Part shown: piece after piece, positions 19,595 to 31,582 of the stretch
Position numbering within the stretch: the first letter of the stretch is position 1
How the letters are laid out: each line of letters opens with the position of its first letter
Assembly: GCA_017882165.1 (NCBI GenBank)
Contig: JADGPZ010000008.1
Coordinates: forward strand, 1 to 40,843
DNA from: Candidatus Kapaibacterium sp.
GTDB taxonomy: Bacteria > Bacteroidota > Ignavibacteria > Palsa-1295
Length of the DNA stretch: 40,843 nt
Reading direction: 5' to 3'
Made by a program: the position numbers and the translations under genes
The notes under the pieces: model-generated
The model's database searches: none
The model's input: only the letters and a program-made list of their open reading frames with translations
Told to the model about the DNA's origin: nothing

Positions 19595-22500
19595 TCATCG
19601 AGAGCGGACCGCCTTCTCGGTTATCCCAGCCGAGACGTCGCTGCCATCGGGATTCTTGCCGTTCAGCGTCACGCGGTAGAGGTACGTCCCGTTGCCGACA
19701 TCGTTGCCCTTCTCGTCGCGGCCATCCCACTCGATCATATTGAGTCCAGCGCGAAGATGCGAAGGGATGAGCGTTCGGATCTTCCGACCCGCGACGGTAT
19801 AGACAATGACCTTAACATCCGCCGCCGCGTCCGAGAATAGGACGAACGTAAACAGCGTCTTGTCCTTGAACGGGTTTGGATAGTTCATCACGTGATCGAG
19901 ACCATTCGTGGCACTGATGGTGAAGCATTGGTGAACGGTATCCACATTGCCGCTCGCGTCTTTCACGGTTGCCGTGACGTTCCACTGGCCCGGCTTGAAA
20001 TGAAACCCAGACCCCGGACTAATAATAAGCTGCGCCTGCAACGGGCCGGTTAGTTGCGTAACAAAGCGAACATTGAATGCCTTCGGGCTTGCGACCCCAA
20101 CTTCCGGATAATACTCTGTGTCCCGCTGGAATGTTGCCAGAATAGAATTGGATGACGTGTCGCGGATGAAGTTCTGGCTGTAGAGATTGATCGTCGTTGT
20201 ATCGTTACTCGATACATAGCCGCATGGCGAGACATGATTATCATCGAGCAAGATCTCGGCGCGCGGCAGAAGCGTATCGGGCGTGACCGTGAAGGCGCCC
20301 GGAATCGCGTCGTTGAAGAGCAACTGCTCGTTCTGTGCCTCGTGCGGATTAACCGTCGCAATGAGCGGCACCGTGCCAAGTTGATTCGTCGTGTTGATGC
20401 TGTCGCTAAAGGAGGCATTTGAATGACCTCTCAACAGCGGAATGGTGTGCGCGATTGTGTCCGTCGTGCTGATCCGGTTACCGACAAGTGTAACGAGAAC
20501 ATTCAGGGCGGAATCACAGGTCAGCGTTTGAATGCTGTATGGCGCGGTCAGTGTGCCGCCCTGTGCAATGGAGTTCGGGGTTGTTGCGATGGAGTCGGTC
20601 GTGAATGCAAATTCGGGTGCCGCATCGTATTCGAGTTCAACTGTGTGAAGCTCAGGACTTTGCGCGGCGTTTGTCGTACGCTGAAAGTCCATTCGCAGGC
20701 CCAAACGGGCATACCTCCGGGGATCGGTCTTTGAAAGATCCAATTGTGAGCCTTGTGATGCACGCAGTGTGTCAATTCGATCGATGCCGCTGCCGTCGCG
20801 CCGGGAGCCGAGCACCGTTATGAGAATATCGCTGCCCGATGGGACCTGACCGTTCACGCGCAGCTTGCCATAGTTGCGAGCGATCGCAGTGAACGGTGTT
20901 AGCGCCAGTCCCGACGTCCCGAATGTCACGACCGTATCCGAAAGGTGCGCACCGTGACCGCCCTGCGGCGAGATGACTTCCCTTGCCATGCCGGGAAGCC
21001 AGCCGTTCCCCCCGAACAGGGCATACCCGTTGAAGTACTGGACGTTGGCAAACCCAACCAGCGAGCCAATGCTCTGCATCGCTCGGGTGACGTTCTGGTT
21101 GTTATAGGTAAAGTAGCTGAATGCGGGTTGAACATTCGTCAGCACGATTACGGCTGTACTATCGGGAAATGATTTCAATACGGAATCGAATGCATTGGCA
21201 ATCGGCAGCGTATATGCGGAGTCGCCGTTTCGCAAGTAGTCCACATCAAACTCGTAGACCGTGTCGATTCCGCCCCGATCATTGGTGAGCCGCGCGATGA
21301 GGTATCCCTGGTTGGAATACGACACGACGGGGTGATCGTTAATGAGGATCAGAGATGTTGAAAAACCAACGGAGCCGGAATCTTGCACCGCATGAGAGAT
21401 CACGTCGTACCGCACTGTGTCCTGCTTTGGCAAGTAGAGTCCATGAACGGGATCGGCGGCAAGCCCGCTCACAATCGTGGAGGCAAGCTGGTCGGCGGAG
21501 GTATAACTGAATTCCGCTCGGGCGGCGCTGGCTGTGCTGAACGTCGCATATTCCCACACCGATGTATCGCCAGCGAGCCGAATGATCCGCGTCCGCCACC
21601 AATAGACAGAAGAGGCGGGAACCAGCAGTCCTGTAAGTGAGACATCGAGCGAACCATAGAACCGCGATCCTGCGGCCGTATCGCGCGAGAGCAGGGGATG
21701 CGCGAATGTAGGCGTCGTGTCGAGTTCGAACTGGATGCGCGAAGCGATGTGTGGCGGAAGGAGGACAATGAAATGGACGTTACTTCCGGAGACATCACAC
21801 ACGTTCCGCGCGCCTTCCCACGGGTAGAACGGTGTGGCCGAAAGGCCATTGACGAGTATCTTGAGCGAGGCATCGTCATCCGTCGTATCCGTCTCGAATG
21901 GACGGAAACGCCGACCCGGATCAATCGAAACCGCAATGGTATGCTCCCCGATCGAGGCATCCGTAAGATGAAATTGAGCCGACACACGTGCCGTGTCGTC
22001 CAGCCTCGTCAGCGTATCGAAGAAATCGAACGGTGTGCCCGTTGGCGGGATGTCCTCGATGCGAACAACGAGTGGAGTCTCCGCCGCATAGCCAAAGTTG
22101 TGAATGAGCGCGGAGATAGTGAGCACGCTATCGCTCACGGTGAACGCGGTCTTTGAAATACCATCTCTCGTGGAAGCGGTTAGGTCATTGCCGTGGACGG
22201 CCAGTTCGGGCTGTGGCCGAAGTGCAAATCCGATCGCCGCATCGCCAAGCGCGGTGTATTGTAATCGAAGATTCAAACCAACATCGCCATAACCGCCGGA
22301 GTCCGACGCAACGAGCTTTGCGGCCGTGAGCATCGCGGTCAGGTTCATCAGCATGGGCTGCGTCGTATCGTGTTGCAGGCGCAGGTAATTGACGTCCTCT
22401 CGCCAATGCCGCATCAGATCGAAAAACTTGGAGGAGAGCACGCCATCATAACCAAGATCGCCAAAACCTGACGTTCCATACGCTATCACGCAGCCCGCCC

Positions 22501-25500
22501 CCGGTTGTTGGAGATACGACGAATTAACGGTTGGCTGATTAGGCTCGCCAAACGCGCCGGTGCGGCAACTCACGGTGAAGAGCAGCGGATACAGTCCTTG
22601 ATTGTGAAGCGTGACCGCATCCGGCAAAAGAATATCCGATGTGAACGTCGCGCCGTGTCCCGCAAAGTACATCAGCGCGATGCCATTCTCGATCTGGCTC
22701 TGAATCTCCGCGACGTGCGATGGATCGGGCGTCGTGTTCAGCGGATCCTTCACGAGTGTAGAGTCCCGCTCGATAATGTGGTAGCGGACGTTCGTCGGCG
22801 GGGCCGAAAGTCCGATCGCGGATGGGTCCATGAATTTGTGGATTTGGTCCACAATATCTTGGTGCTGGCTTGTGCCGGAGCCGCCAGCGAGAAACAGGAA
22901 CTGCCGGTTCCACGCGGCCGGCGCGCCGTCTTCATATTCCTGGAGCTTCTTGACATAGGCGTCCGCGCCGGCAGCTCCTGAAACAGGAATGCGCGAGATA
23001 ACCATGCGTGGCTGGATCGAATCCAGACGACCATCCTCCGCAAGCGTATAGTAGAAGTCGCTCGTAGGCCAGCCGTATGTTGGAATGAAGCTGCGCAGGG
23101 TTGTTCGCGAATCTCGTGCTTGAAATACGTTATTCAGATTGAATTTCGGATCCCATGTGCCTGCGCCAAACAGCGTGACATATCCAACCGGCAAGCCTTG
23201 CTGGCCTTGATACATGAAGTACGCATAACTCAGGAATCGGCGAATGGCATCCGGCTCGCCGGAGCCGTAATCGAATGCGTTGTAGACCTCGTCGGTCGTT
23301 ACGACCATCGAGGCAAGTCCCGCCTTTGTACGCCGAATCGCGAGCAATTGCGCATCGAGCAGGAATTCGGGATGCGTAATGATGATGTAATCGGCGTGGT
23401 TCGTGGTCTTGAGAATATTCCAAGATCCCGCGCCGCCGCTGTTCCACTTCTCGATCCGGTCGCAGGCAAGCAGGGTGGACGCAGTTGCCGCAGTATAGGA
23501 TGCTTGGGCCACCATTGGCGAGTCGATGAAGGCTCCCGCCTGAGGCAGGATGCGTGTCCCATCGCTCATGTTGTAGAGGTGGGGCGTGTCACTTGAAGTG
23601 AGCGAGATCTGAAATGCCGGCGAGGCCGGTTGAAGTCCAAAGCGCCATTGCCCCGGAGCGAATGCCGTGTCGCGGTTCGGAGCAAGTCCGCCTTCGAAGC
23701 GAACCGAATAATGGTCGAAGTAATAGAAGTCGATGGTGTCCGCACCCGCAGCCGTTGTCATCTCCAGCGTGTTTGCACCTTCATGGAGTTGAGAGAGGGG
23801 GAATACAACGCGTGATGTATCCTCGTTGAAATCGGAAATGGAGCCGTCATATACCGGTGAGCCGTTGATCTTGGCAATGACGCGGTGCTGCCCATTTACA
23901 CTCTGTGTCATCCCGCGAGCAAGGATCTGTAGCGTAGCGGCCTTGCCTTGCGTGACAGCCGGAAGTTTCGAAACAAAAAAAGTATCGACCAGCCGAAGAT
24001 GCGTCGTGTCAAACAGGGGGCTGTGGATTTCATACCACTCGAAGCGTTCGCCGGGAGTGTACGTGGAGGGATGGACGGTGATTTCGTCGCGTCCACGCGA
24101 GTCGCCGAAGTAATAGAAGTAGTCGCGCTCGTGGTGGAGTTCGATTGTGCCACTCGAGACAGAACCGGATGCCAATGCTCGATTCGGTGCCCGTGCCATG
24201 TAGCGCCGATGTGTGCCACCTTGACTGGAGTTCGTCAGCCAGTAGGCGTTCGTGTCTGTCGTGATATTGTAAAACTCCGGGAGGCCATCGTTCAGCGGGA
24301 CGCCGTGCAGATGCTCGCCGTAAAACTCGATGGCGGTGATATTACCGCTCCCATCGGTGTCGATCCAAATCGGAATCTCAACGCCGCGATTGATGCATCG
24401 AAGATTCTTTTGCGTGAAGTGTGCCGGATCGAAGCTACCGGTGCGTGCGATGATGTCGCTTGTCGTCACGCGGTAAAGCCCATCGCGGGTCACCGAGAGC
24501 TTCACGTACTCAGCACTCGGGTCGATCCAGGCAAATGCAGTCGAGTCGAGCATGGCGAGTGGCCGGATGCCGCCGCTCTGCGCCCGCTTCGTCGCGGCAA
24601 TTGCGAACGGATGCGCTCGCGCTGGCCGAAGTCGCACGCGAAATTGCGGGAGGTCCCACGCATTCGCAACGAGATGCGTGTTGAGTCCCGCGAAGAGAGC
24701 ATCGCTTACTGGCGCTGCGGCAGTTGTGCCGCTCGCCGTGAAGTTGATACCAACGCGGAATTTGGAAAGTGCTATCAGTGCGCCGCTATTCGAACTGACG
24801 AGCGGATACCGTACCGTGATCGTCCGAAGCGAGCGAAATGTCCGGGCCTTCCCAATTGTCGGTGTAAGACTCCACGACGCACTGAGCGCGCGCGGATCGA
24901 AAGCCTGATCTGATTGCTTTCCGTCACTCTGCCGCATTGCCGGCACCAGATGGATGTTGCCGAGCGGCGACGTTGCGAGTTGATCGAAGACCGGAGTGAA
25001 TGACTTGGCATTCTCTGGAATTGCAAACGTAACAGCAAGCACCGGATACTCTGCGCCGCCTTGTGTCGTTGCACGCTCGATCGTAAACCCATTCGGAGCA
25101 TTGGCGAGCGATGGCCAGTTGACATTGCTAAACTTCACGCTCGCCGGAGCATTCTTGACTTGTGCCCTAGCGCGCTCAACGAGCGGTGCGCCGATCGAAA
25201 CCGTCAGCACCACTCGGCCACTATTTTGCGTAACCGATGTCGAGTGATCCAGAATCATACTCGATGCCGAACCGGCAGTGGTCATCCGTTTGATGACAGG
25301 CCTTCGTGCAGCTTGCTTCGCCAGCATCCGAATGTGGCTCGATGCCGCTATCGGCAGGGGAGCCGAAGCTCGCTGTGCGGCCTGCGCCTGCGCGGGCGGA
25401 GCGGCGGAGACTCGTGGCACGCGAGCAACCTGCGCGCGAGCGCACAGCGCTACGCAGAGGCCGGCGGCGACACAGACTGTCGAAAGGCTACGAAAAGATC

Positions 25501-25552
25501 TGAGAGTTCTCAACACGATGAGAACGCGCCCGCCTTCGACAATGTCCCACAT
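19595..25552 (-). CDS. porU: C25 (gingipain-family) peptidase, type IX secretion sortase PorU-like (PorU2-type)
   Basis: 1985 residues, larger than P. gingivalis PorU (about 1160). The N-terminus has a Sec signal (VLRTLRSFRSLSTVCVAAGLCVALCARAQ). The C25 caspase-like domain covers about residues 730-1110: YIIITHPEFL, GDVGY-like GYVTLFGAGTWD, the catalytic histidine H966 in MYFAGHG and cysteine C996 in FTVSCRTGAF. After it come several beta domains (CARDB-like about 1140-1250, others to about 1870). The end is a FlgD-like/T9SS C-terminal domain (MNYPNPFKDKTLFTF ... GNDVGNGTYLYRVTLNG). PorU removes the sorting domain of T9SS cargo and attaches the cargo to surface glycan. It is 36 bases downstream of a PorD-like gene, which supports a T9SS role. 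PorU versus another C25 protease is not fully settled. Confidence 0.85.
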   Translation of the reverse strand: MWDIVEGGRVLIVLRTLRSFRSLSTVCVAAGLCVALCARAQVARVPRVSAAPPAQAQAAQRASAPLPIAASSHIRMLAKQAARRPVIKRMTTAGSASSMILDHSTSVTQNSGRVVLTVSIGAPLVERARAQVKNAPASVKFSNVNWPSLANAPNGFTIERATTQGGAEYPVLAVTFAIPENAKSFTPVFDQLATSPLGNIHLVPAMRQSDGKQSDQAFDPRALSASWSLTPTIGKARTFRSLRTITVRYPLVSSNSGALIALSKFRVGINFTASGTTAAAPVSDALFAGLNTHLVANAWDLPQFRVRLRPARAHPFAIAATKRAQSGGIRPLAMLDSTAFAWIDPSAEYVKLSVTRDGLYRVTTSDIIARTGSFDPAHFTQKNLRCINRGVEIPIWIDTDGSGNITAIEFYGEHLHGVPLNDGLPEFYNITTDTNAYWLTNSSQGGTHRRYMARAPNRALASGSVSSGTIELHHERDYFYYFGDSRGRDEITVHPSTYTPGERFEWYEIHSPLFDTTHLRLVDTFFVSKLPAVTQGKAATLQILARGMTQSVNGQHRVIAKINGSPVYDGSISDFNEDTSRVVFPLSQLHEGANTLEMTTAAGADTIDFYYFDHYSVRFEGGLAPNRDTAFAPGQWRFGLQPASPAFQISLTSSDTPHLYNMSDGTRILPQAGAFIDSPMVAQASYTAATASTLLACDRIEKWNSGGAGSWNILKTTNHADYIIITHPEFLLDAQLLAIRRTKAGLASMVVTTDEVYNAFDYGSGEPDAIRRFLSYAYFMYQGQQGLPVGYVTLFGAGTWDPKFNLNNVFQARDSRTTLRSFIPTYGWPTSDFYYTLAEDGRLDSIQPRMVISRIPVSGAAGADAYVKKLQEYEDGAPAAWNRQFLFLAGGSGTSQHQDIVDQIHKFMDPSAIGLSAPPTNVRYHIIERDSTLVKDPLNTTPDPSHVAEIQSQIENGIALMYFAGHGATFTSDILLPDAVTLHNQGLYPLLFTVSCRTGAFGEPNQPTVNSSYLQQPGAGCVIAYGTSGFGDLGYDGVLSSKFFDLMRHWREDVNYLRLQHDTTQPMLMNLTAMLTAAKLVASDSGGYGDVGLNLRLQYTALGDAAIGFALRPQPELAVHGNDLTASTRDGISKTAFTVSDSVLTISALIHNFGYAAETPLVVRIEDIPPTGTPFDFFDTLTRLDDTARVSAQFHLTDASIGEHTIAVSIDPGRRFRPFETDTTDDDASLKILVNGLSATPFYPWEGARNVCDVSGSNVHFIVLLPPHIASRIQFELDTTPTFAHPLLSRDTAAGSRFYGSLDVSLTGLLVPASSVYWWRTRIIRLAGDTSVWEYATFSTASAARAEFSYTSADQLASTIVSGLAADPVHGLYLPKQDTVRYDVISHAVQDSGSVGFSTSLILINDHPVVSYSNQGYLIARLTNDRGGIDTVYEFDVDYLRNGDSAYTLPIANAFDSVLKSFPDSTAVIVLTNVQPAFSYFTYNNQNVTRAMQSIGSLVGFANVQYFNGYALFGGNGWLPGMAREVISPQGGHGAHLSDTVVTFGTSGLALTPFTAIARNYGKLRVNGQVPSGSDILITVLGSRRDGSGIDRIDTLRASQGSQLDLSKTDPRRYARLGLRMDFQRTTNAAQSPELHTVELEYDAAPEFAFTTDSIATTPNSIAQGGTLTAPYSIQTLTCDSALNVLVTLVGNRISTTDTIAHTIPLLRGHSNASFSDSINTTNQLGTVPLIATVNPHEAQNEQLLFNDAIPGAFTVTPDTLLPRAEILLDDNHVSPCGYVSSNDTTTINLYSQNFIRDTSSNSILATFQRDTEYYPEVGVASPKAFNVRFVTQLTGPLQAQLIISPGSGFHFKPGQWNVTATVKDASGNVDTVHQCFTISATNGLDHVMNYPNPFKDKTLFTFVLFSDAAADVKVIVYTVAGRKIRTLIPSHLRAGLNMIEWDGRDEKGNDVGNGTYLYRVTLNGKNPDGSDVSAGITEKAVRSR

Positions 25553-25588
25553 TTACGCACGATTGGCGGTGGGCACTGATTTTTGACC

Positions 25589-26518
25589 TTAGTGCGATAG
25601 CTTCGCCTGCGCTTCCTCATAGTAATTCTGGTGCACCGGATCGAGGAAGCCGAGTTTTTGAAAATAGGCTGTGAGGTTATCCGGAAAGAGCCGCGCCAGA
25701 TCGGCAAGCTCCTGGTTCTTCGCTTCGAAAAACGCGCGCAGGAACACACTCCGTCCCGCGTCCGACGAGATCCGCCTCAGCGACACCAGCGAGTCGATCA
25801 CCGTCCCAATCGTCACCCGCGCCTGATCCGGTTTCGTCGAGAGCAGATCGAGTCCGTTGTAGTGATACGCGAAGATCAAATCGCGAAACGCACGGTTGTT
25901 CGCATTCATGGCGTCTTCAATATAACCCAGCCGAGTATAGGTGCCGATGCTGGTCACATTCGGCGCCCAGCCGTTCCCTTTCTGTGCACTGGCGATGATC
26001 GCCACCTGCTGTGCCTGCTGGAAGTATGGCGTGCCCGACTGCAACTTATACGAATCGAAATCGAGGCCAAGGATCGTATAGACATAAAAATCGACGACGC
26101 TTTCGAGCGAGCGGTAACCATTGCCGTGCTGAAGCTCTTGACCGCGATAGTACGAGAACTCGCAGCCCGCATCGAAGAAGCGCGCCATCGTCGTCACCTG
26201 ATCGCTTTTGTAGAGCGGACGGCTGCTCGTGACGAAAAGCTGCGCGGTATAATCGCCGCCGTTCGAGCTGACGATATTGAACTGGAACGAGCAGCGAATC
26301 CGCTCGCCCGAAAAATTCGTCGTCCACTCGTAGCTGTTGATGTAGCTTTCGAGATCGTGCTTGAACGCATCGAACGCGATCCGGTCCTGCGTGGTCAGCG
26401 CGCTGAGATTCAGATTCACCTGCGCGTCCAATTCCTCGGCGCGAAGTGTGGATGCGCTATCATCCATCCCACCGTGAGCCATGAGCACAAAAAGGCAGAG
26501 AAAGATCACTCTTTTCAT
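25589..26518 (-). CDS. porD: PorD-like type IX secretion protein (DUF4835)
   Basis: 309 residues from ATG 26518 (MKRVIFLCLFVLMAHGG, a signal peptide); ATG 26530 four codons earlier is possible. The family pattern is clear: EELDAQVNLNLSAL, FKHDLESYINSYEWTTNFSGERIRCSF, FVTSSRPLYKSD, and LESVVDFYVYTILGLDFDSYKLQSGTPYFQQAQQV. The remainder is alpha-helical, ending YYEEAQAKLSH. DUF4835 proteins (PorD in Flavobacterium/Porphyromonas nomenclature) are needed for T9SS function by an ill-defined periplasmic role. The porU-like gene follows in the same direction, so the two form a T9SS operon. Upstream lies a 560-base AT-rich spacer that must hold its promoter. Confidence 0.88.
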   Translation of the reverse strand: MKRVIFLCLFVLMAHGGMDDSASTLRAEELDAQVNLNLSALTTQDRIAFDAFKHDLESYINSYEWTTNFSGERIRCSFQFNIVSSNGGDYTAQLFVTSSRPLYKSDQVTTMARFFDAGCEFSYYRGQELQHGNGYRSLESVVDFYVYTILGLDFDSYKLQSGTPYFQQAQQVAIIASAQKGNGWAPNVTSIGTYTRLGYIEDAMNANNRAFRDLIFAYHYNGLDLLSTKPDQARVTIGTVIDSLVSLRRISSDAGRSVFLRAFFEAKNQELADLARLFPDNLTAYFQKLGFLDPVHQNYYEEAQAKLSH

Positions 26519-27007
26519 CGCTTCAACCAACGGGGGCCACAGGTGCTTAGTTCAATGTGTGAAATTACACCGCCATTAGTTTTCAGCAGCTCGTTCGTTC
26601 TTTCAAAGTTCATGAACTGTGCCGTTTTTGAACCGCATTCGCCATTGCGCTGTCCAAGAGACACAATTCATCGTTTCTCTCTTTTGAATTGTCATTTAAT
26701 GAACGCCCTCTCCGCGCCAATTTTTTGTCAATGAGCAAAGGTGCATCTCAATCTGTGTATTAATATAACACAATTTCAGGTGAACCCACCAAAAACCCAC
26801 CATCATTGAACAACTATTCATAGTAATATTCCGTGGATCGAGGATAGTTTTCCATTTTGTGTAGTAGTTTTGCATTTGGAAGTACACCGCCCGGACCCAT
26901 CAACGGTCCCTCCAGGCGCTCCCATGGTTCCGGGCATGTTTTGCTCGCCCGGTTTTGTCTTAATGTTCGTATCATTTGGTTGACCTATGAAACATAATTC
27001 GACCCCG

Positions 27008-27038
27008 ACTGAGTACACTCAGTCCGCCGCGGCGGACT
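27008..27038. repeat. Two adjoining palindromes upstream of the beta-helix gene
   Basis: ACTGAGT-AC-ACTCAGT (27008-27023) overlaps AGTCCGCCGCGGCGGACT (27021-27038), a perfect 18-base palindrome. The two structures share AGT and so are mutually exclusive if folded fully. They lie immediately before the heptamer tract. Confidence 0.7.
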
Positions 27039-27040
27039 CT

Positions 27041-27068
27041 CAGCACTCAGCACTCAGCACTCAGCACT
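27041..27068. repeat. Four perfect CAGCACT heptamers
   Basis: CAGCACT is repeated four times without mismatch, ending 9 bases before the ATG at 27078, in place of any ribosome-binding site. Copy-number change would alter leader length. The related 9-mer CTCAGCACT appears at 32280-32288. Confidence 0.85.
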
Positions 27069-27077
27069 CTTAGCGCG

Positions 27078-30000
27078 ATGTTACTTTCGTGCATTCTCCT
27101 CCTCCTCAGCCTCACCGGCGCGAGGGGGCAATCGAACTCGGAATACAACTTCGTAGGTTACCCCTATAACAGTCAATTAGGCGTACAAGATGGCTACGAC
27201 TACCACGGAGTATACGGAGAGGCTGACATGCCCATCCTTACGATGGATTGCCTTGCTGCGAACGGGTCAGGCCAGTGGACACTAACGACGCAGACTGGAA
27301 TTGGAAGCGAGTATGGAGTAGGCTGGTATCTGCTTGAGAATGCATTGCGAAACCCCGAGATCATAGGTACGCCGGTTCCCCCGGGAGTAGTTGCCAATGG
27401 ATCATTTAGCTCCGCTTCCCGGTATTCACCCCTCCAGCCGAAAGTGACAGCGAATCTTGATGAGTCGGTGAATTACGTTTTTCCATCGGGCGACCGGAAG
27501 TCGTTCGACATCGAGTACTTCGGGCCCAGCGATATCGACATTTCGTTGCATGGCATTCCGAATGATGGCACGGCGTTCCCTTCAGGGACACAGGTTGTCA
27601 AGGCGAGCGGCCTCGTCACCCACTCGGCGAACATCACGACGTACGATGGCACTTATTATCACGATATCACGAGCGAATCGAATTACAAAGACGATTTCGC
27701 CGTCTGTTCCGATGGATATTATGTGTACATCACATGGTGCTCGAGCGTTCACACCGGGGGAGGAAAGTACGTCTACTTTACATACTTCGATCTTGCGACG
27801 CATACGCAGTCAACGATAGTGGTCGTGGGTGCTGGAAGGAAGCCGACGATTGCTTGCGACGTGCGCAAGAACAGGACGGGATCGCCTGCGGTCTGGTACG
27901 AAATAGGGTATGTCACGACAGCAGGAGGCAGCATCATCTGGACGTATAATCATGGAGGCGCGACGGGAACGTACACGACGAACAATGTCTACATCGATCC
28001 TTCTTCTGGATCGACGGTATCGTTCTCAATCGCCGATCATGTGTGTGCGTTGGTGAGTTCCGTGGTGGGCGTCATTCAATACTCGGCGTTATATGCCATT
28101 GTCGAGAATAGCGCAGGCAAACACCTCGTGATGTACAATCCGAGCAACACGAATCTGACTTCGGGTGATGCCGCTTATGTCGATGGGAATCTTCTTGTGC
28201 CATATAGCACGACGTTACTACCTACGCCATCTTCCGGTAATGGCTGGCCCATCCTCGATGCTCCACTTGTGGCATTTGCGAACCCGTATGACAATCAATC
28301 GAGTTGGCACACCTACGATCAGTTTCACTGCCTGTATCAGCTCGATTTATCTGCCGCTTCAGGTCAGCTCACGGATGAAGTAGCGCCATTGCTCATCGTC
28401 AGAAATGCCGACAACGGCTCGAGCCATCCAACATCCCCGGACCCAGGCAGTCATGATACGCGGTTAGTCATTAATCAGACGTTGTCCGAACCCCCTCCTA
28501 CGCCTCATCCAATATTGATGACAGATCCTAATTCCGGATACACGGCCTCGGTCAACCAAATGGGGATTCACGCCCATTGGCGTAACGGTGCCGCAGGCTC
28601 AGGCACGCATTATTATTTCCGTGACTGGAACAGGACTTTTGATGAGGGGATCGATGAGAACACGCTCGTGACGGATATTTGCTTTGTGACTAACGGTTCC
28701 AGCTCAGGGACGAACCATGGTGGGACTCTCGGCGCGACGCTCACGAAGAACTATCGAATGACCATCTGGACCGATCCGAATTACGGGTTTAATAGTACAG
28801 ATGTGACAATCGGTACCTATCAGGCTAATGGCAATCAATGCACAGGTGGATTATTCTTAGGAAATGGTTCGACTGCAATGAACGGTATGCGCCTGACGGT
28901 CGGCGAAGGCACGTCGACAAGCGCCGCGACCTTTACCATGGGGACAAACAGCATGTTCGTCGAGGACGATGTCTCAACCGGCCAGGGGTTAACCGTAACA
29001 GGCAATTCCTTGTTCGACTATTACGGACTCTACTACGCCATGAATAATACAGGCCTCCCTGCCTCTGAAGTGCTTCCTTTTAATCGTGGTGCTGTTGGTG
29101 ACGCTTATGGCCGAACGTTAGGTAGCGACGGTGGCGGCGATGTGTTCCTTGATGGCACAACGTCGCTCAGTGCAAACATGAACGTTCACGGCGGCGCCAG
29201 TTTTCATCTTGCCGAGCTTTCGACTTTCGAAAGCAGCTATGGCAAAATCGATATCAAGTATGAGCCGAACATCTTTCCAATCCATGCCAGCGGCACGGCG
29301 AACAGTGATGCCTCCGGCGTAATGGAGTTCGCTTGTCCGGCGACGTTTACGCATTCGACAATCACCGCGCACTTTCCTTCGATCTCGGCGATTAACTTCA
29401 TGATCCATGTCCTCAAGGCTCCTGATGCCGGCCTTGGCGGCAGCAACCCTTTCGGGCAAATGACGTCATCCTTCACAAGTTATTCGAATTCTAATAGTAA
29501 CGGATTGGCTGTGATCCGGTTCGATAATAATACTCCGGGCGGGATAGTGAATTACGGCGCTTCCAGCTTCACGGACGATAATTTCAGCGTCGTGCAAATC
29601 ACGGCCATCGATCCGCAGACTGATTTCACCGTTCAAACCTCGACCTTCGGCGGAACCCAGCTTTACGCTGTCGATTTGGAAAGCCTGAGTCTCTCGTCAT
29701 ACGGCAGTATCCAAATCACGAACAACACGTTCAACGATGGCGGAACGAATGCTCTCGCCGATGTATATGTTTATCAGATGAACGCCGAATCGATCAGCAG
29801 CGTCGATGTAGAGAGTAACACTCTTTACGCTGGGCATCATGATACAGATTATCCTTTCACCGGTATATTCTACAACCTGTCTTATGGTCTGATCGGCTTC
29901 AATTCAATATCAGGTGGCTTCATAAGAGGCATAAGAGATTTCGGGCCGTACAGTTCCCCGTGGGATGGCACTTTGATTTGTAGCAATCCGATTACGGATC

Positions 30001-31382
30001 TCACGATCGGTTCCACAACCTATTCGCCGGGCCAAGGCATACTTACATCAGGTTATCAGGGTTATGTGAAGTTAGAGGACATCTCACATGCTGGAAGCGG
30101 GTATACACATATGACAAATGGTGGTCCGCCGCATCTGGTTTTCAGCAAGATATACAGCAATAATTACTTCGGTGTTGTAGCAGCGGCCACTCTCGATTTG
30201 AGTGGCGTTCATCACCCATTAGGCTATGGGGATCTCGCCGGCCTCAATGAGATACATGACAATGGTGATTATCAGATTGATATTACTTCGTCCAGTACTG
30301 ATCTCTGGCTAACTCGCGCTCCCGGCTCAACATGGACGGTCGATGGCGAGAATAATATCTATCAAGGAAGTAGCTCGTCGAGTGTTCTCATTCAGGGAGA
30401 TGCGAATGGAAATGCGACCCTTGATATCGGTAATAATTGGTGGGGAGGCACGGTTGACCCTTCTGGCGCTGAAGCATTTCCGAATTCGACTTACTTCCCA
30501 AGTTATAACTACACTACGTATGGTTCAAATGCATCTCAGTCCTCCATCTCTGGCATTAGCTGCTCGGGGGGATTGGTTGCGAAACCAGTCGGTCAGATTC
30601 CGCAATCGATCCAATCCGAAGACACTGGACTCTGCAATCAGGCAATCAACCTGGCCTTAATGTGGAACTCCGATGCTATGAACCCGGATTTGGCTTACGA
30701 TACGATGCACTATTATATTTTGCATTGTTACCAAATCGCGAATGCCACCCAAACGTTTGGCGCATTGGGTGGGTGCTGGGGTAGTGAAATGAACACCTTG
30801 CAGGGAAGGTTGAATGAACGTGCGTTTCTGATCAGTGCTTTGAAGCTCCGAAGCGACAATGAGTGGTTCTGTCAGGATGTTGGAGCCATGGTTTCAACAT
30901 ATGATGCTGCTCCCAAAAGACAAGATGCACGCGTTGCACTCGCCATCATTCAATTTTTGATAAATAACCCCAGATGTGCGGCGGACCGTACCGGGAATAT
31001 GTATGCATACGATGGTACCCGAGCCGGTTGGTACCAAGGCTGGCTGGACACCGCAAATGTTTATTACAAGGGCGAGGTCTTCGATTCAACGTTGCCGACG
31101 ATGCATCAACTTGGGCTTGATAGCGTTTTGATGTATGCTTCCGCCAGTGTGTATTATGAGGCTTCCGGGCCTCAAATCATAGGGGATGCACACGTAATCA
31201 CCAATCCATTCCAGGACGAAACGAGCCTATCGCTCGCGATCAACCGCGAAGCGTATGTACACATCGAGGTATTCGACCCGCTCGGCAGAAAGTTAGAGAA
31301 GGCTGGTTTCGATGGAGTCTTCGAAACAGGTTCGCGTGTCGTGCCGCTCGGCTTGTCCTCGCAGCCGCCGGGCACGTACTAA
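27078..31382 (+). CDS. Large secreted beta-helix protein with an interrupted T9SS sorting domain
   Basis: 1434 residues. Signal peptide MLLSCILLLLSLTGARGQ. The N-terminal about 500 residues are beta-rich without a recognised family. From about residue 560 to 1130 repeated short strands and turns (SIQITNNTFNDGG, VESNTLY, GFNSISGG, LDIGNNWWGGTVDPSG) indicate a right-handed parallel beta-helix. A helical cysteine-containing segment (about 1160-1350) precedes a T9SS domain starting near residue 1363 (VITNPFQDETSLSLAI). That domain stops early: PPGTY is followed by TAA (31380-31382). In the same frame 31383-31439 then reads LRISTANNEVRTIKLVKE and stop, exactly the missing end of a sorting domain. 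Either a nonsense mutation, a sequence error or programmed readthrough. Confidence 0.82.
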   Translation: MLLSCILLLLSLTGARGQSNSEYNFVGYPYNSQLGVQDGYDYHGVYGEADMPILTMDCLAANGSGQWTLTTQTGIGSEYGVGWYLLENALRNPEIIGTPVPPGVVANGSFSSASRYSPLQPKVTANLDESVNYVFPSGDRKSFDIEYFGPSDIDISLHGIPNDGTAFPSGTQVVKASGLVTHSANITTYDGTYYHDITSESNYKDDFAVCSDGYYVYITWCSSVHTGGGKYVYFTYFDLATHTQSTIVVVGAGRKPTIACDVRKNRTGSPAVWYEIGYVTTAGGSIIWTYNHGGATGTYTTNNVYIDPSSGSTVSFSIADHVCALVSSVVGVIQYSALYAIVENSAGKHLVMYNPSNTNLTSGDAAYVDGNLLVPYSTTLLPTPSSGNGWPILDAPLVAFANPYDNQSSWHTYDQFHCLYQLDLSAASGQLTDEVAPLLIVRNADNGSSHPTSPDPGSHDTRLVINQTLSEPPPTPHPILMTDPNSGYTASVNQMGIHAHWRNGAAGSGTHYYFRDWNRTFDEGIDENTLVTDICFVTNGSSSGTNHGGTLGATLTKNYRMTIWTDPNYGFNSTDVTIGTYQANGNQCTGGLFLGNGSTAMNGMRLTVGEGTSTSAATFTMGTNSMFVEDDVSTGQGLTVTGNSLFDYYGLYYAMNNTGLPASEVLPFNRGAVGDAYGRTLGSDGGGDVFLDGTTSLSANMNVHGGASFHLAELSTFESSYGKIDIKYEPNIFPIHASGTANSDASGVMEFACPATFTHSTITAHFPSISAINFMIHVLKAPDAGLGGSNPFGQMTSSFTSYSNSNSNGLAVIRFDNNTPGGIVNYGASSFTDDNFSVVQITAIDPQTDFTVQTSTFGGTQLYAVDLESLSLSSYGSIQITNNTFNDGGTNALADVYVYQMNAESISSVDVESNTLYAGHHDTDYPFTGIFYNLSYGLIGFNSISGGFIRGIRDFGPYSSPWDGTLICSNPITDLTIGSTTYSPGQGILTSGYQGYVKLEDISHAGSGYTHMTNGGPPHLVFSKIYSNNYFGVVAAATLDLSGVHHPLGYGDLAGLNEIHDNGDYQIDITSSSTDLWLTRAPGSTWTVDGENNIYQGSSSSSVLIQGDANGNATLDIGNNWWGGTVDPSGAEAFPNSTYFPSYNYTTYGSNASQSSISGISCSGGLVAKPVGQIPQSIQSEDTGLCNQAINLALMWNSDAMNPDLAYDTMHYYILHCYQIANATQTFGALGGCWGSEMNTLQGRLNERAFLISALKLRSDNEWFCQDVGAMVSTYDAAPKRQDARVALAIIQFLINNPRCAADRTGNMYAYDGTRAGWYQGWLDTANVYYKGEVFDSTLPTMHQLGLDSVLMYASASVYYEASGPQIIGDAHVITNPFQDETSLSLAINREAYVHIEVFDPLGRKLEKAGFDGVFETGSRVVPLGLSSQPPGTY

Positions 31383-31439
31383 CTCCGCATCTCAACAGCG
31401 AACAACGAAGTGCGGACGATTAAGTTAGTGAAGGAGTAA
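31383..31439 (+). pseudogene. Detached C-terminal end of the T9SS domain, in frame after TAA
   Basis: Eighteen codons, LRISTANNEVRTIKLVKE, then TAA. They complete the sorting domain of the preceding gene without any frameshift; only the TAA at 31380 separates them. There is no separate start codon. It is listed as the broken-off end of that gene rather than as an independent gene. Confidence 0.8.
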
Positions 31440-31448
31440 GCGCTAACA

Positions 31449-31475
31449 ACCCCCGCCTAACGGCGGGGGTCTTTT
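31449..31475 (+). terminator. Rho-independent terminator of the beta-helix gene
   Basis: A 9-bp perfect stem, ACCCCCGCC with GGCGGGGGT, and loop TAAC, followed by CTTTT. It starts 10 bases after the second stop (31439), which suggests the gene originally ended at 31439 rather than 31382. The stem resembles the CCCCCGGC hairpins of the 12139-12333 repeat. Confidence 0.85.
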
Positions 31476-31498
31476 ACAATCGCGAGAGGAGATGCGTG

Positions 31499-31582
31499 TG
31501 CCCGAGGCCGGACTCGAACCGGCACATTATCGCTAACGGCAGATTTTGAGTCTGCTGCGTCTACCAATTTCGCCACTCGGGC
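31499..31582 (-). tRNA. tRNA-Leu (anticodon CAA)
   Basis: 84 nucleotides. Acceptor stem GCCCGAG/CTCGGGC, D-loop AATTGGTAGA, anticodon arm GCAGA-CTCAAAA-TCTGC (anticodon CAA), a long variable arm typical of class II tRNAs, and T-arm GGTTCGAGTCC. The discriminator is A and CCA is not encoded. Confidence 0.95.

What the first reader, a model, noticed from the sequence alone, without database searches (positions are those of the whole stretch)
31360..31445. In-frame TAA splits a T9SS sorting domain exactly before its last strands
The 1434-residue cargo ends PPGTY-TAA, but the next 18 codons in the same frame read LRISTANNEVRTIKLVKE and then TAA, the normal end of a sorting domain. The terminator sits 10 bases after the second stop, not the first. 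Without these strands T9SS recognition should fail, because the last residues of the domain are known to be required. Possibilities: recent nonsense mutation, assembly error, or stop readthrough giving secreted and retained forms.
Basis: partly seen in the sequence, partly recalled or inferred. Interest (0 to 1): 0.72.

Follow-up and report, generated by a model that had tools for sequence, protein, structure and literature searches.

The report
Nonsense-truncated secretion tag, single gene
One accessory secreted-protein gene in an uncultured bacterium (Ignavibacteria/Bacteroidota lineage) carries a single stop codon where every intact relative has tyrosine or another amino acid, cutting off the end of its export tag; this looks like an ordinary recent inactivating mutation (or one wrong consensus base), not a new mechanism.

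Summary
The 1434-codon frame 27078-31382 ends PPGTY-TAA and the next 18 codons, LRISTANNEVRTIKLVKE-TAA (31383-31439), are the normal end of a type A T9SS sorting domain. The nearest homologue (another genome of the genus) ends PPGTY-Y-LRISTANNEVRTIKLVKE: the tail is 18/18 identical, with 7 DNA differences, all synonymous. In about 55 intact homologues from 13 genomes of the family the interrupted codon is Tyr, less often Phe, once Ile, never a stop. TIGR04183 recognises the window protein only when read through. In the model of the homologue the stop falls inside strand 6 of 7 and strand 7 is lost, so T9SS export should fail. Readthrough is not supported: the stop is not conserved, TAA is the least leaky stop, no suppressor tRNA was found, and none of the genome's 150 best-scoring sorting domains carries an internal stop. 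The gene belongs to a large paralogous family and is absent from the equivalent tRNA-Leu-flanked site in the nearest relative. Best explanation: a recent one-base nonsense mutation (or strain variant) in an accessory cargo gene; a consensus error in the draft assembly cannot be excluded without reads. Ordinary; low interest.

The parts
27078..31382 (+). 1434-codon ORF: signal peptide plus large secreted-type cargo, truncated in its C-terminal sorting domain
   Evidence: ORF; homologues over the whole length at about 39% identity in other genomes of the genus
31200..31379 (+). Remaining part of the T9SS type A sorting domain (strands 1-5 and first residues of strand 6)
   Evidence: alignment with intact homologues; model of homologue
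31380..31382 (+). In-frame TAA in place of a tyrosine codon
   Evidence: TAC in the nearest homologue; TAC/TAT (Tyr) or TTC/TTT (Phe) in nearly all others, ATT (Ile) in one
31383..31436 (+). 18 codons LRISTANNEVRTIKLVKE: the rest of the sorting domain, now downstream of the stop
   Evidence: 18/18 identical to the nearest homologue, 7 synonymous and 0 nonsynonymous differences; 1 TAA read through in a profile match of 125.7 bits
31437..31439 (+). Ancestral stop codon TAA
   Evidence: same place as the stop of homologues
31449..31475 (+). Probable intrinsic terminator (9-bp stem, 4-base loop, then TCTTTT)
   Evidence: fold; not called by the strict scan
31498..31582 (-). tRNA-Leu (CAA) flanking the cargo gene, conserved beside greA in relatives

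Best explanation
A large T9SS cargo gene, one of an expanded paralogous family at a variable site next to tRNA-Leu, has suffered a recent single-base nonsense change (Tyr codon to TAA) inside the sixth of seven strands of its C-terminal sorting domain. Translation stops there; the product would still reach the periplasm through its signal peptide but lacks the conserved final strand, so it should not be exported by the T9SS and would be retained or degraded. It is a newly inactivated (or strain-polymorphic) accessory gene. Shown: stop, intact relatives, unchanged tail, loss of domain recognition. Inferred: failure of export, recency, population status.
For: Stop and tail read directly. About 55 homologues from 13 family genomes have an amino acid (mostly Tyr, then Phe, one Ile) at this codon and continue to the normal end; none stops there. 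Nearest homologue G005:C1 has TAC there and an identical 18-residue tail with 7 third-position, all-synonymous differences (a random substitution in the tail is synonymous with chance 0.25, so 7 of 7 has P of about 6e-5 without constraint), so the tail was constrained until recently; with about 41 nonsynonymous sites unchanged, the neutral time since the stop is below about 0.07 substitutions per site. The 150 best TIGR04183 places in the own genome and the 150 best PF18962 places have no internal stop, so this is an isolated event. Accessory status: at the equivalent site of G005, between greA/tRNA-Leu and porD, there are other genes and no such cargo. Another family genome has an unrelated TGA in a different sorting domain, so sporadic nonsense does occur. 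Published work: removing two C-terminal residues of RgpB abolishes secretion and retains it in the periplasm; the last 22 residues of HBP35 carry the signal (cited in PMC11285876).
Against: No reads, so a wrong consensus base or a mixture of strains cannot be separated from a fixed mutation. The other 1433 codons are free of stops and frameshifts, as expected for a very young lesion but also for an error. Export failure is extrapolated from Porphyromonas gingivalis.
Confidence: 0.66

Rival explanations
1. Consensus error or minority-strain base in the draft assembly; the real gene is intact.
For: The genome is a 249-contig draft; the tail is perfectly preserved and the lesion is one base; no other lesion in the gene.
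Against: It is a substitution, not a homopolymer indel; the long genes of the same contig are intact and no internal stop occurs in the 150 best sorting domains of the genome, so the error rate is low. No second near-identical copy of the locus exists in the assembly.
Confidence: 0.27
2. Programmed or leaky readthrough of the TAA gives a major retained form and a minor secreted form of the protein.
For: Tail conserved in sense and followed by the terminator; the +4 base is C, which is less favourable to termination than U (PMC5289835).
Against: The stop is absent from every homologue, so it is not a conserved device; UAA is the least read-through stop (PMC5289835); no tRNA with a stop-reading anticodon among the assembled tRNAs; TAA, TAG and TGA all serve as normal ends of the homologues.
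Confidence: 0.05
3. Selected loss: the truncated form is kept because the non-exported protein is useful, or the site toggles as phase variation.
For: The lesion removes only the export signal and leaves the rest intact.
Against: No repeat tract is visible at the site in the sequence; a single base change does not toggle at high rate; nothing shows selection for the truncated form.
Confidence: 0.02

Closest known systems
T9SS type A C-terminal sorting domain (TIGR04183 / PF18962)
   Same: Same domain, same final motifs (PxGxY..R...K.VK), seven-strand topology in the model of the nearest homologue; final strand present in frame after the stop.
   Different: The frame is closed by TAA within strand 6, so the encoded protein lacks the end of the domain.
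Experimentally truncated T9SS cargo domains (RgpB, PPAD in P. gingivalis; PMC11285876)
   Same: Loss of the C-terminal end of the signal domain; there it stopped secretion.
   Different: Here a natural or apparent nonsense codon removes 19 residues; untested in the cell.
Recent nonsense pseudogenes in paralogous surface-protein families
   Same: Single in-frame stop, otherwise intact frame, intact relatives, accessory gene.
   Different: No difference found.

Membership tests
T9SS type A sorting domain (TIGR04183) | Profile match over the curated cut-off (23 bits) | tested here: not met
   Annotated 1434-aa product: no match; read-through frame: 27.4-29 bits. Pfam PF18962 reaches only 15.6-17.6 of 27 bits even when read through.
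T9SS type A sorting domain (TIGR04183) | Seven-strand fold with intact C-terminal strand | tested here: not met
   Stop at domain residue 92 in strand 89-97; strand 102-109 lost (model of homologue L070).
T9SS type A sorting domain (TIGR04183) | Homology of the region, including the codons after the stop, to sorting domains of relatives | tested here: met
   Profile of 46 homologues matches 31107-31436 with 125.7 bits, one TAA read through.
Nonsense pseudogene (recent) | Premature stop in a reading frame that is intact in relatives | tested here: met
Nonsense pseudogene (recent) | Lesion present in the organism rather than in the assembly | not testable with these tools
   No reads; one genome per species is held, and no close orthologue was found in the genus.
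Programmed stop-codon readthrough | Stop codon conserved in homologues with conserved downstream frame | tested here: not met
   No homologue has the stop.
Programmed stop-codon readthrough | Decoding agent (suppressor tRNA or reassigned TAA) | tested here: inconclusive
   No suppressor anticodon among assembled tRNAs; tRNA-Tyr, Thr(GGT) and Ser(TGA) are missing from the draft, so the set is incomplete.

The most novel reading that the evidence does not exclude
Low-level decoding of the UAA lets a small share of this cargo keep its export signal, so that one gene gives a retained and a secreted form in this one species.
Probability: 0.04. Interest if true: 0.6.

Novelty: new member of a known kind. 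Interest (0 to 1): 0.12.

Why it matters
It matters little beyond annotation: a pipeline would list this protein as lacking a T9SS signal although its gene descends from a T9SS cargo. If the mutation is real, it is a natural counterpart of laboratory truncations of the sorting domain, and strains with and without it could be compared.

Tried and rejected
A natural earlier end of the domain: rejected, all intact homologues continue. Reassigned genetic code: rejected, TAA, TAG and TGA all end homologous genes and none of the 150 best sorting domains in the genome has an internal stop. Suppressor tRNA: none in the draft. Recurrent stop at this column in other cargo genes: not found; the only other internal stop in the listed family-wide profile matches is a TGA at a different column in G009:C210. 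A second strain copy of the locus in the own genome: none. A genome-contig scan with the full protein found no relative; a narrower alignment found relatives named as Ignavibacteriae/Bacteroidetes MAGs, apparently including genomes already seen, no closer orthologue. Plasmids: no match. Papers on premature stops in T9SS signals: none in the held library. The fold search of the model gives mostly generic Ig-like matches; a T9SS RemA-CTD complex is among them at rank 18.

Full report
What was claimed and what is there. The window frame 27078-31382 encodes 1434 residues and ends PPGTY-TAA; the same frame goes on for 18 codons, LRISTANNEVRTIKLVKE, to a second TAA at 31437-31439. A strong G+C-rich hairpin with a T-rich tail starts about 10 bases after the second stop (-20.5 kcal/mol, z = -4.8), though a strict consensus scan does not call it.

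Is the downstream frame really the end of the domain? Yes. tblastn of the C-terminal region against homologous loci from the 13 genomes held for the family shows that intact homologues continue through this point and end about 18-20 residues later. The codon that is TAA here is Tyr in most, Phe in several and Ile in one. The nearest homologue, G005:C1 (L070/L012), ends PPGTYYLRISTANNEVRTIKLVKE: identical to the window but for the stop. In DNA, the 54 bases after the stop differ at 7 positions, all third positions and all synonymous; about 25% of random changes would be synonymous. The tail was therefore under protein-level constraint until recently. If the tail became neutral when the stop arose, the absence of nonsynonymous change bounds the age at roughly 0.07 substitutions per site. 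This is weak evidence since only 18 codons are involved, and paralogues in the genome share similar tail DNA (77-84% over 68-83 bases), so exchange between paralogues may contribute.

What the stop does to the domain. NCBIfam TIGR04183 scores 27.4-29 bits (cut-off 23) on the read-through frame and nothing on the annotated product; Pfam PF18962 is sub-threshold even when read through (15.6-17.6 bits against 27). A profile of 46 intact homologues matches 31107-31436 at 125.7 bits with one TAA inside, within the range of intact members. An AlphaFold model of the homologous domain (L070, mean pLDDT 84.9) has seven strands; the stop position lies inside strand 6 (89-97), and strand 7 (102-109) is lost. 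According to work cited in PMC11285876, loss of two C-terminal residues abolishes RgpB export with periplasmic retention, loss of two residues is tolerated by PPAD but loss of four is not, and the last 22 residues of HBP35 hold the signal. Loss of 19 residues here should abolish T9SS export (inference).

How exceptional is it? The own genome has at least 150 type A sorting-domain matches; the 150 best by each of two models have no internal stop. In the listed family-wide profile matches only two have one: this TAA and a TGA at a different column in G009:C210. This is the pattern of isolated lesions, not of a device.

Readthrough. A conserved readthrough device would show the same stop in relatives; none has it. 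UAA is the least read-through stop in bacteria (PMC5289835), although the following C is less favourable to termination than U. None of the 43 tRNAs found in the draft reads a stop codon; the draft lacks tRNA-Tyr, Thr(GGT) and Ser(TGA), so the set is incomplete. Readthrough is given about 5%.

Genomic setting. The cargo lies between a porD gene (NF052317, 205 bits) and a tRNA-Leu(CAA)-greA-ribBA-type block. greA, the ribBA-type gene and tRNA-Leu are neighbours in several relatives, and in G005 the stretch between this block and porD holds other genes with no match to the cargo. The cargo gene is thus accessory, with no close orthologue in the genus (best about 39% over its whole length) and many paralogues. 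Loss of one such gene is probably tolerated (inference). Named relatives are uncultured Ignavibacteriae/Bacteroidetes MAGs.

Verdict. Most likely a recent single-base nonsense mutation, or strain variant, in an accessory T9SS cargo (0.66); a wrong consensus base is the main rival (0.27) and only reads can decide. Either way it is ordinary.

Noticed in passing
window 19595-26530 (-): A C25-family sortase-like gene related to PorU/PorU2 (below the equivalog cut-offs) next to a porD gene, directly beside the interrupted cargo gene.
   Followed up: partly
L138 (G009:C210:6329-6601): A homologous sorting domain in another genome of the family with an in-frame TGA at a different position, otherwise intact to its end.
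   Followed up: partly
own genome, e.g. G000:C167:8235-8302, C214:17881-17948, C171:3592-3674: The last 68-83 bases of sorting domains of different paralogues are 77-84% identical in DNA to the window's; possible gene conversion or shared codon constraint at the 3' ends.
   Followed up: no
own genome, all contigs: tRNA-Tyr(GTA), tRNA-Thr(GGT) and tRNA-Ser(TGA) were not found among 43 tRNAs; probably an assembly gap.
   Followed up: no
L141 (G005:C16 45.9-59 kb) against window 26530-31498: The stretch between tRNA-Leu(CAA) and porD holds different large genes in the two genomes, a variable site.
   Followed up: partly
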